Positions 52,511 to 54,387 of a DNA stretch of 63,934 nucleotides are shown here, in pieces; the stretch's first letter is position 1, and every line of letters starts with the position of its first letter. The DNA lies in the NCBI RefSeq assembly GCF_021162145.1, contig NZ_JAGGZH010000147.1:1-63934 (forward strand), in the 5' to 3' direction. The DNA comes from Thermotoga sp. (lineage in GTDB: Bacteria; Thermotogota; Thermotogae; Thermotogales; Thermotogaceae). Under the pieces are notes generated by a model. The model saw only the letters and a program-made list of their open reading frames with translations. It searched no databases and was not told the origin of the DNA. The translations under genes and the position numbers were made by a program.

Positions 52511-53379
52511 TTTACTATGGTACCATATTCGATCACAAAGTGAGATTTTCTATCGTCCGGATGAAAGAAGTGGTGGAAGAAGTAAGAAACCGGCACAATC
52601 TTTCTTATCTTGCCACGGTCGTTTTGGGAAGAGCCCTCATCGGTGCAGCATTGATGACACCGTGGCTCGCAGAAGGAGAACGATGGACCCTCGACATAGA
52701 GGGGGACGGCCCCATAAGAAAAGTGATCGCCCAGTCGACGAACAAGTTCACCGTCAGGGGGTACGTTGCAAATCCTTCCGTGGAGCTTCCTCTGAAAGAA
52801 AACAGGAAGTTCAACGTTTCTGGAGCGATCGGAAGGGGTGCCCTTAGGGTGATACGGGATCTTGGATTGAAAACTCCCTTCGTCTCCCAGGTTCCACTGG
52901 TGAGCGGAGAAATTGCTGAGGATCTTGCCTACTACTTCACCGTTTCCGAGCAGATTCCATCTGCCTTTTCTCTTGGGGTCCTCATGGATACAAGGGGTGT
53001 GAAAATAGCAGGAGGATTTGCTGTTCAGATTCTCGATAGGTCCCTTGAAAAAGAAAATGTGGAGATGATAGAAAATAACATAAAGAACCTTCCTTACGTC
53101 ACAAAACTCTTTCAGGAGACAGAACCGCTGGACGTTTTGGAAATGATCTTCGGAGAGAAGGTGGGCTTCGTCGAAACAGCGGAGATAAGATACAGATGCG
53201 ATTGCAACCGTGAGAAGGCAAAATCTGCTCTTCTTGTGCTGGATGAAAAAGAACTGGAAGATATGAGAAAGGAAGGAAAGGGAGAAGTAATCTGCAAGTG
53301 GTGCAGCACGAAATATGTCTTCTCTGAAGAGGAATTAAGAGAGCTTCTCAAGCTCAAGAAAAACAGTGCGAGTTCCTGA
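52507..53379 (+). CDS. hslO: Redox-regulated chaperone Hsp33
   Basis: 290 residues. Holdase activated by disulfide formation. C-terminal zinc site Cys-x-Cys ([11 protein letters not shown]) and Cys-x2-Cys ([12 protein letters not shown]) is intact. N-terminal domain with [15 protein letters not shown] 52507 overlaps ispD (ATGA). The 3' 45 bp overlap the convergent clamp-like gene. Matches TM1394. Confidence 0.95.
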
Positions 53380-54387
53380 AGGGTTCGAGATCTTCAAAAA
53401 TCTTTCTGTGATCTCAAGGACAATTTTTTCGCTTTCCATGCGGGCAAGGGTGCTTCTCAATTTCTTTGAGGGAAAGACCACGAGGAAATCCCTGCCCGGC
53501 TCTACGAACAGTTCCGCGGTATAGCTCAGATTCTTTTTCTTCACAACTATCTTCATTATATCGTTTTTTCTTGAAAGTGTGGCATAAGACCCTTTTGAGA
53601 TCACCGCTGCTTTTCTCACAAGCTTGGCAAGGATCTCTTTTCTTGACTCCAATCTTTCAATGGTCTCTTCCACCAAGATGTTTTTGAGAGCCTCTTTTTC
53701 TACCATGTCCACCCTGTCTCCGCAGACCTCCATGATGAGATAGGGGTATTTCACCACCAGTTTTCCTGATTTTTCGTAAAAGTCCAGAGTTTGAACGTTC
53801 AGTCTCTGAAGGGCTTTGAAGATGTGTCTCACCGTTACGTAGGGTATTTTCAAGGAGAAAGAAGTCGTGGGAACGGCGGAGACCTGAGAGAGAGTCACTA
53901 TATCCGAAGAAGGTCCGAACATCAACACACTCTTCTCCTCAAAGAGGAAGATCAGAAATTCTCCTTCGTCCAGATTCGAGCTGGCAAAGTTGATCGATCT
54001 TTCAAACTCGCGCTTGGAAAGTGTGCAGAGGAACTCCTCCTTTCCATTTTCAGGTGGGATCTCCCCCACCTTACATTTGACATCCAGTACCTCGTTTCCT
54101 GCCTTCAAAACGAGATGATCTTGTGAGATTGTGATGTACACTTCTTTGACCTTCACGTCACTCAGAAAGAACTTGAGCAGATCCAGGGAAACCGTTCTGC
54201 TTCCCTCAAAGCGCGGGATCTTTCCTAGAAATATTTCCATGCTCGCACAGTTGTCACTCGCTCTGAGCCAGAGTCCATCCCTGAAGAAGAAATCGATGAA
54301 TCTCGCGCTTGGTTCTATGGTTCCAACAAGTTTGTCGAGCAAAAAAACCCACTCTCTCAACTCATGAGAATCAACGAGAAGTTCCAC
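53335..54387 (-). CDS. Protein with weak DNA sliding-clamp (DnaN-like) architecture, unknown function
   Basis: 350 residues, no signal peptide. I do not recognise a named gene. Length and layout recall the beta sliding clamp (about 366 residues, three similar domains). Near residues 13-50 LVGTIEPSARFIDFFFRDGLWLRASDNCASMEIFLG looks like clamp domain I; ~118-160 LSKREFERSINFASSNLDEGEFLIFLFEEKSVLMFGPSSDIVTLS looks like domain II; ~290-350 holds the third. The canonical DnaN of T. maritima is TM0262 elsewhere, so this would be a second, diverged copy. It is read 6 bp after alaS and overlaps hslO convergently by 45 bp. Confidence 0.6.
   Translation of the reverse strand: MELLVDSHELREWVFLLDKLVGTIEPSARFIDFFFRDGLWLRASDNCASMEIFLGKIPRFEGSRTVSLDLLKFFLSDVKVKEVYITISQDHLVLKAGNEVLDVKCKVGEIPPENGKEEFLCTLSKREFERSINFASSNLDEGEFLIFLFEEKSVLMFGPSSDIVTLSQVSAVPTTSFSLKIPYVTVRHIFKALQRLNVQTLDFYEKSGKLVVKYPYLIMEVCGDRVDMVEKEALKNILVEETIERLESRKEILAKLVRKAAVISKGSYATLSRKNDIMKIVVKKKNLSYTAELFVEPGRDFLVVFPSKKLRSTLARMESEKIVLEITERFLKISNPSGTRTVFLELEKLS

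What the first reader, a model, noticed from the sequence alone, without database searches (positions are those of the whole stretch)
53335..54387. Second sliding-clamp-like protein beside alaS
The protein has DnaN-like length and three segments that look like clamp domains, yet is too diverged to be the replicative clamp, which T. maritima encodes elsewhere. A paralogous clamp could act in repair or as a decoy scaffold. The call rests on visual pattern only.
Basis: inference. Interest (0 to 1): 0.5.

Follow-up and report, generated by a model that had tools for sequence, protein, structure and literature searches.

The report
Second sliding clamp across Thermotogota
This unannotated gene encodes a very diverged second DNA sliding clamp, found in nearly every genome examined of a mostly heat-loving bacterial phylum alongside the normal clamp, in which the groove that normal clamps use to hold their partner proteins is not conserved.

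Summary
Window 53335-54387, minus strand, is a real 350-aa gene with no match over a curated Pfam or NCBIfam cut-off. AlphaFold2 gives a confident three-domain beta-clamp fold (pLDDT 92.5); the best PDB match is T. maritima DnaN (Z 29.2, 12% identity). Family profiles find DnaN by sequence too. The family ("X") is in 98 of 103 Thermotogota genomes and 0 of 287 other bacteria at E <= 1e-15, beside a separate DnaN (100 of 103). X and DnaN are separate in the tree. In two families X lies directly downstream of polC (30 of 38 genomes). X is basic (mean net charge +5.4; DnaN -17.2). The canonical partner groove (domains II-III) is not conserved; the conserved patch sits at the pseudo-equivalent I-II junction (sets drawn after seeing the data). 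Most likely X is a second DNA clamp tied to the PolC replisome with a rebuilt partner site. Fold and homology are shown; ring, DNA and partner roles are inferred. It was not found in five genomes, so it may be dispensable.

The parts
53335..54387 (-). Gene X: 350-aa diverged beta-clamp paralog (GTG start, stop included)
   Evidence: fold; homology
54394..54400 (-). Probable ribosome-binding motif GAGGTGA, overlapping the alaS stop codon, 6 nt from the GTG
   Evidence: sequence printed; motif assignment is inference
54310..54324 (-). Residues 22-26 (G-T/S-x-E-P), loop after helix 1 of domain I; G22 in 96/96 rows, E25 in 93/96, P26 in 73/96
   Evidence: secondary structure
54247..54258 (-). Residues 44-47 (T/S-D-G/N-C), domain I loop pseudo-equivalent to the TDGxR pocket loop of DnaN domain II; D45 in 94/96, C47 in 91/96
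53962..53982 (-). Residues 136-142 (S....EG), loop after helix 1 of domain II; E. coli R152-L155, which follow here, have no counterpart in X in the profile alignment
53902..53913 (-). Residues 159-162, position of the canonical DnaN pocket loop (E. coli T172-H175); not conserved in X
53815..53844 (-). Residues 182-191 (PYxSxRHxxK), helix 2 of domain II; R187 and K191 in 96/96, H188 in 91/96; predicted pore-facing side
   Evidence: orientation inferred from the helix pattern
53722..53724 (-). C222, end of last strand of domain II, 92/96 (91/96 by the exact count of C47/C222 pairs plus 2 rows without C47); both Cys 47 and 222 present in 90/96, both absent in 3/96
53338..53364 (-). Residues 342-350, C-terminal tail where Thermotogota DnaN has the conserved MP(I/V)R; not conserved in X
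54394..56988 (-). alaS (864 aa), directly upstream on the same strand (a neighbour; not linked to X outside Thermotoga and G004 in the loci seen)

Best explanation
X is a second sliding clamp that separated from DnaN at or before the base of Thermotogota and has been inherited vertically since. (1) Shown: beta-clamp fold (predicted, high confidence) and common ancestry with DnaN; coexistence with DnaN; phylum-wide (about 0.97). (2) Inferred: like DnaN it closes into a head-to-tail two-subunit ring whose basic inner helices (K72, R187, K191, R311/R316) hold duplex DNA (about 0.65). (3) Inferred: it does not receive partners through the standard QxxLF groove between domains II and III, which is not conserved; the strongest conservation is at the pseudo-equivalent junction of domains I and II (G22/E25/R29, D45-G46-C47, P182/Y183/T185, C222), so X binds a different partner or peptide there (about 0.45). 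(4) Inferred: the partner works with the PolC replisome, because polC and X are neighbouring genes in two families (about 0.45). The division of labour would be: DnaN carries PolC and other QxxLF proteins; X holds the same DNA for a partner of its own.
For: Fold: two AF2 models from different families, pLDDT 92.5 and 92.2; both match beta clamps over their whole length. Sequence: hhalign X (96 rows) vs DnaN (31 rows) prob 98.5, E 3e-15 for one comparison, 341 columns collinear; profile A4 against PDB sequences: 9 of 9 hits at E <= 0.1 are beta clamps, best 1vpk E 2.7e-6; A4 also finds DnaN genes in the genomes (best E 2.3e-19). Distribution: 98/103 Thermotogota, 0/287 others at E <= 1e-15; DnaN in 100/103. 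Tree of 51 X and 32 DnaN rows: split 100/100; 7 of 9 X family labels are one clade at bootstrap 100, f45 at 96/85, f1 in two parts. Charge: +5.4 vs -17.2; six pore helices +8.3 vs +3.2. R187, K191, G22 in 96/96. Groove: mean entropy at 14 mappable canonical-pocket positions 2.93 against an X average of 2.62; in DnaN 0.41 against 1.53. I-II set 1.32 against an X average of 2.66 (gap-weighted), p 0.00015 against random blocks; II-III set p 0.23; in DnaN II-III p 0.0002, I-II p 0.07. polC-X: 26 of 26 computed pairs on one strand, gaps -8 to 14 bases; 30 of 38 genomes of families f9+f10 by coordinates.
Against: No experiment; AF2 was run on monomers only, so the ring is not tested. The I-II patch was noticed before the position sets were drawn (post hoc), and no coordinates were available to measure whether the residues touch. 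E25 and E141 are acidic residues in loops where E. coli clamp contacts DNA (recalled). In the window's own protein the two domain I helices are not basic (-1 and 0). polC linkage was not seen outside f9 and f10 (57 of the other 65 genomes could be judged) nor in the 7 genomes of genus g32, so it may be operon accident. PolC ends in QxxLF in 26 of 26 and 30 of 30 (overlapping sets), which points PolC itself to DnaN, not to X. X was not found in 5 of 103 genomes, and the matching gene position in G002 holds an unrelated ORF.
Confidence: 0.6

Rival explanations
1. Mixed ring: X pairs with DnaN to make a clamp with only one canonical groove, as the three PCNAs of Sulfolobus share a ring (recalled). 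The loader would open it through the DnaN half.
For: X and DnaN coexist in nearly all genomes; X lacks the groove a loader would use, so a DnaN half would solve loading.
Against: Interface positions look matched within X rather than to DnaN: E99 in domain I (67/96) against K/R259 (86/96) and R/K265 (67/96) in domain III, whereas DnaN has basic domain I and acidic domain III positions (interface list recalled). Opposite overall charge could also favour mixing, so this is weak.
Confidence: 0.15
2. Decoy or regulator: X keeps the clamp fold but does not carry partners on DNA; it binds DnaN, the clamp loader or DNA to limit replication.
For: Canonical groove not conserved; fast evolution (X 45% identity between G000 and G004, DnaN 78% between G009 and G004; dN 0.034 vs 0.008 for the same genome pair G009/G006); absent from the matching position in G002.
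Against: Invariant basic residues and a strongly conserved patch across the phylum argue for an active, probably DNA-linked role.
Confidence: 0.15
3. Ordinary backup clamp, as Bacillus DnaN-2: same partners, same groove, just a duplicate.
For: Second clamp gene beside dnaN; precedent in Bacillus spp. (passages of PMC3290774).
Against: 8-15% identity in structural alignments instead of about 40%; groove and MPxR tail not conserved; X is a deep clade apart from DnaN.
Confidence: 0.04
4. Clamp fold reused for something else: the invariant R187/H188/K191 with C47/C222 form a ligand, metal or redox site unrelated to DNA sliding.
For: C47 and C222 go together in 93 of 96 rows (90 both, 3 neither; the 3 form one clade, so one event; 2 rows lack only C47, 1 lacks only C222); such a set of near-invariant Cys/His/Arg/Lys is unusual in clamps (my judgement).
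Against: Basic inner helices and polC linkage fit DNA work.
Confidence: 0.06

Closest known systems
DnaN, replicative beta sliding clamp (T. maritima TM0262, PDB 1vpk)
   Same: Three-domain clamp fold over the full length, domain order I-II-III, collinear sequence profile, basic inner helices.
   Different: 12% identity to 1vpk, 8-15% to the listed clamps; canonical partner groove, R152-L155 loop and MPxR tail not conserved; basic instead of acidic overall; conserved patch at I-II; not the dnaN locus.
Bacillus DnaN-2 (second dnaN of many Bacillus spp.; B. anthracis)
   Same: A second bacterial beta clamp beside DnaN (PMC3290774, passages).
   Different: The review gives about 40% 'sequence homology' to DnaN-1 and infers that DnaN-2 can take part in replication; X is far more diverged, phylum-wide, and its groove is not conserved.
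PCNA and its archaeal paralog sets (Sulfolobus PCNA1-3, recalled)
   Same: Clamp fold; several paralogs in one cell are known (recalled).
   Different: PCNA subunits have two domains and form trimers (recalled); X has three domains and matches bacterial and phage beta clamps first.

Membership tests
Sliding clamp fold / beta-clamp superfamily | Three similar domains in beta-clamp topology over the whole chain | tested here: met
   Predicted: AF2 pLDDT 92.5, pTM 0.87; Z 29.2 to 1vpk; second family member best Z 28.0
Sliding clamp fold / beta-clamp superfamily | Sequence homology to DnaN | tested here: met
   hhalign prob 98.5 over 341 columns; profile hits 1vpk E 2.7e-6 and eight further beta-clamp sequences at E <= 0.1
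DnaN (replicative beta clamp, TIGR00663 / PF00712-PF02767-PF02768) | Score over the curated cut-offs | tested here: not met
   P0001: no NCBIfam match, one sub-cut-off unrelated Pfam match. Of 90 family members, at E <= 0.01: 5 match TIGR00663, 5 PF00712, 2 PF02767, 1 PF02768 (best 9.8e-6); single members also match unrelated models down to 6e-4
DnaN (replicative beta clamp, TIGR00663 / PF00712-PF02767-PF02768) | Canonical partner groove (L155, TDGxR loop, P242/V247, MPxR tail) | tested here: not met
   L155, S346 and R365 have no counterpart; the 14 mappable positions are less conserved than the X average, against the most conserved set in DnaN (E. coli list recalled). Some f3 and f9 members keep a tail remnant such as LPMR or IPL
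DnaN (replicative beta clamp, TIGR00663 / PF00712-PF02767-PF02768) | The cell's replicative clamp gene | tested here: not met
   A separate dnaN is over cut-off in G000:C112 and in 100 of 103 genomes
DnaN (replicative beta clamp, TIGR00663 / PF00712-PF02767-PF02768) | Head-to-tail dimeric ring loaded on DNA | not testable with these tools
   Monomer predictions only; basic pore helices are consistent
Bacillus DnaN-2 type duplicate | Close similarity to the cell's own DnaN | tested here: not met
   12% identity to the Thermotoga DnaN 1vpk; X and DnaN rows split 100/100 in the tree
PCNA | Two-domain subunit | tested here: not met
   Three domains in both models, aligned over the whole chain with three-domain clamps

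The most novel reading that the evidence does not exclude
Thermotogota run a two-clamp replisome: DnaN plus a basic, phylum-specific clamp tied to PolC whose partner-binding site has moved by one domain, from the II-III groove to the pseudo-equivalent I-II junction.
Probability: 0.25. Interest if true: 0.87.

Novelty: new variant of a known kind. Interest (0 to 1): 0.7.

Why it matters
Bacterial cells are generally taken to run on one sliding clamp with one partner groove (recalled), apart from close duplicates such as Bacillus DnaN-2. Here nearly a whole phylum carries an unannotated second clamp, so distant that Pfam and NCBIfam do not call the window's protein at all, with the common groove not conserved and a different patch kept. 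If it works on DNA, it changes the replisome parts list of Thermotogota, offers a natural case of a clamp rewired for other partners, and gives a concrete reason to ask what a second clamp does beside PolC and DnaN. The literature searches made here (open-licence PMC papers only, mostly seen as listings) showed no mention of it.

Tried and rejected
Plain sequence searches with the single protein gave nothing useful: PDB phmmer best E 0.37, unrelated; a first genome-contig scan found no relative; the shallow 8-9 row profiles reached DnaN only weakly (hhalign prob 13 and 6) and the PDB not at all. Depth of the family alignment decided it.

Domain permutation (X domains ordered like DnaN II-III-I) was considered because 4 of the 9 PDB hits at E <= 0.1 had their best stretch with X domain I-II on DnaN domain II-III, and secondary stretches of four of the five hits shown put X domain III on DnaN domain I. 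A 3x3 domain comparison speaks against it: each X domain scores best with its own DnaN counterpart (XI-NI 51.6 vs XI-NII 45.0; XII-NII 33.9 vs XII-NI 27.1 and XII-NIII 17.0; XIII-NIII 43.9 vs XIII-NI 33.0), and two-domain halves likewise (71.5 and 74.3 vs 55.9 and 42.4). XI-NII is a close second, and DnaN domains I and II resemble each other anyway (73.9).

PolC/X co-occurrence is uninformative: PolC is over cut-off in 97 of 103 genomes and matches in 102 (some of these only exonuclease-like fragments). The alaS/hslO neighbourhood as a functional link was dropped: seen only in Thermotoga and G004. Other contexts gave no common theme: a cluster whose example is TsaD lies directly upstream of X in most f3 loci, a Ddl cluster in f2, a YchF-like GTPase two genes upstream in f8 (clusters; one example each named). 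Blastp also found a ClpC-like gene within 5 kb of X in 7 loci of three families; not followed. X was not found in G001, G002, G016, G017, G078; only G002 was checked by gene position (an unrelated 189-aa ORF there); G001 had no match to the marker gene; assembly gaps are possible. A search outside the phylum by conserved peptides found 6 loci, all Thermotogota by title (low sensitivity, since most known members were not returned). Which phyla the 287 outside genomes come from is not shown. I could not reach the AF2 coordinates, so residue distances, pore geometry and a dimer were not computed.

Full report
WHAT IS THERE. The stated coordinates hold one open frame on the minus strand, 350 aa, GTG start at 54387. 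It follows alaS by 6 bases on the same strand, has a GAGGTGA motif in the right place and converges with hslO, overlapping it by 45 bases. It is under purifying selection: dN/dS 0.06-0.10 by NG86 for the three relatives where that method gave a value (a fourth saturated), 0.09-0.19 by YN00 for four. Hereafter it is called X.

FOLD. Pfam, NCBIfam and PDB sequence searches with the single protein gave no meaningful hit. AlphaFold2 with nine family sequences gave pLDDT 92.5, pTM 0.87. In Foldseek against the PDB the 50 rows shown are all beta clamps by title (best E 3.4e-21, TM about 0.8). In VIA-align the 50 entries shown are beta clamps or, by title, complexes with one (best 1vpk, T. maritima DnaN: Z 29.2, rmsd 3.8, 346 residues, 12% identity). 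Viral matches are led by phage proteins, those with names being beta clamps. A second model, of a polC-linked member from another family (L090), gave pLDDT 92.2 and the same kind of result: best Z 28.0, 1vpk Z 26.9.

ANCESTRY. With 96 family members, hhalign joins X and DnaN over 341 columns, prob 98.5, E 3e-15 for a single comparison. The 90-row profile A4 finds 1vpk at E 2.7e-6 among 177,635 PDB sequences; all 9 hits at E <= 0.1 are beta clamps. It also picks up dnaN genes in the genomes (for example G090:C24, E 2.3e-19, positions 2-329). In the other direction TIGR00663 finds the X gene of G037 (E 2e-4), G041 (0.003) and G043 (0.009). Of 90 members, 5 match TIGR00663 and 5 PF00712 at E <= 0.01; single members also match unrelated models. 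A PHROGs processivity-factor family matches one of four members tested (E 3.7e-5, L065) and not P0001. Domain order is the same as in DnaN. In a tree of 51 X and 32 DnaN rows the two groups are separated at 100/100; seven of nine X family labels are single clades at bootstrap 100; f1, f2 and f3 group together at 86/84 and f9, f10 and f11 at 93/86, both below the starred level. I read this as one origin at or before the base of the phylum and vertical descent; the tree is rooted at the midpoint only.

DISTRIBUTION. The shallow profile gave a match in 97 of 103 Thermotogota genomes at E <= 1. The deep profile at E <= 1e-15 finds X in 98 of 103 and in 0 of 287 bacteria outside the phylum; one of the 98 (G045) is a fragment of 101 positions. 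DnaN is over cut-off in 100 of 103, PolC in 97 of 103. X was not found in G001, G002, G016, G017, G078. In G002 the gene position shared with sister genera (upstream of the pcm-like gene) holds an unrelated 189-aa ORF, so loss in that lineage is likely; the others were not checked.

NEIGHBOURS. In Thermotoga and G004 X sits between alaS and hslO; this was not seen elsewhere. In families f9 (Kosmotogaceae, by two record titles matched on contig length) and f10 (probably Petrotogaceae, inference) X lies directly downstream of polC, often as ruvC-polC-X. PolC and RuvC were confirmed for one example each by NCBIfam. Computed for 26 loci: 26 of 26 on the same strand, gaps -8 to 14 bases (in one more locus with PolC, L057, the gene caller missed X). 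By coordinates, 30 of 38 f9+f10 genomes have the pair (16 of 17 in f9, 14 of 21 in f10); the exceptions are the seven genomes of genus g32, where the two are apart, and G045, where polC runs off its contig and X is a fragment. Of the other 65 genomes, X or full PolC is not listed in 8, and in the remaining 57 the listed places are apart. In 26 of 26 and 30 of 30 (overlapping sets) PolC carries QxxLF at or near its C-terminus, the standard clamp-binding motif (recalled), so PolC itself should bind DnaN.

CONSERVED RESIDUES. In 96 rows G22, R187 and K191 never vary; D45 94, E25 93, C222 92, C47 91, H188 91, R316 91, E141 90. At the canonical partner groove E. coli L155, S346 and R365 have no counterpart, and the other positions are more variable than the X average (2.93 vs 2.62 bits, 14 positions), while in DnaN they are strongly conserved (0.41 vs 1.53, 17 positions) (the DnaN set of 31 Thermotogota rows plus E. 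coli is shallower, so compare only within each family). In f3 and f9 some members keep a remnant of the tail, such as LPMR or IPL. By secondary-structure position the groove has pseudo-equivalents at the I-II junction and at the dimer side. In X the I-II set stands out (1.32 vs 2.66, gap-weighted; p 0.00015 against random blocks), the II-III set does not (p 0.23); DnaN shows the reverse (II-III p 0.0002; I-II p 0.07). Ten of the 25 most conserved X positions are in the I-II set, three in the II-III set, one at the dimer side, eleven elsewhere. I drew these sets after seeing the conservation, so the p-values are a guide, not a test. K72, R187/H188/K191 and R311/R316 lie in or just after the second helix of domains I, II and III; the helix pattern suggests that they face the pore (inference).

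CHARGE. Mean net charge is +5.4 for X (96 rows) and -17.2 for DnaN (32 rows); the six pore-lining helices sum to +8.3 and +3.2. P0001 itself sums to +8, all from domains II and III (domain I: -1 and 0).

MECHANISM. The best reading is a second ring clamp on DNA with its own partner site, linked to the PolC replisome. The (predicted) fold and the ancestry are shown. The ring, DNA binding, moved site and PolC link are inferred, with the probabilities given in Best explanation.

KNOWN WORK. A review notes a second dnaN in many Bacillus species, about 40% similar to the first, and infers that DnaN-2 can take part in replication (PMC3290774, 12 of 21 passages seen). A 2026 survey of bacterial polymerases (PMC12926913, 12 of 14 passages seen) has one 'sliding clamp' mention and does not speak of a second clamp in the passages shown. 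Searches for a second Thermotoga clamp showed nothing relevant (otherwise listings only). Subscription papers and preprints were not searchable.

VERDICT. Confirmed as a clamp paralog; unusual because it is phylum-wide, its common groove is not conserved and it is not called by curated libraries. X belongs to the clamp superfamily by fold and sequence but should not be filed as DnaN, since defining features of DnaN were tested and not met.

Noticed in passing
G049, G050, G051, G060-G065, G067, G068, e.g. G050:C1:1829520-1831880; G050:C1:1818024-1819064: Eleven f10 genomes carry a second PolC-like frame (about 900-1025 aa, 828-967 bits, starting at about position 376 of the 1211-position profile); in G050 a second DnaN match with two stop codons lies about 10 kb away.
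   Followed up: no
G097:C23 (L140): A second, full-length DnaN that branches with E. coli DnaN (93/98) rather than with the Thermotogota DnaN rows; possibly a mobile element's clamp.
   Followed up: partly
G024:C55:30330-31463: A 502-aa frame with a sub-cut-off but clear DnaN match (E 2e-36), next to a 743-aa frame with further weak clamp matches.
   Followed up: no
L119 (G054) and L136 (G072): X is split over two frames in these two genomes (frameshift or sequencing error).
   Followed up: no
G015: A 93% complete genome with X and PolC but no DnaN match at E <= 1; may be an assembly gap.
   Followed up: no
L061, L079, L114, L119, L124, L134, L135: A ClpC-like gene lies within 5 kb of X in these seven loci of three families, as in the window (clpC at 49158-51539); cdsA-uppS-frr lie near X in two f8 loci (L115, L118) on the opposite strand.
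   Followed up: no
window 53335-53379: The 3' ends of X and hslO overlap by 45 bases in convergent orientation.
   Followed up: no
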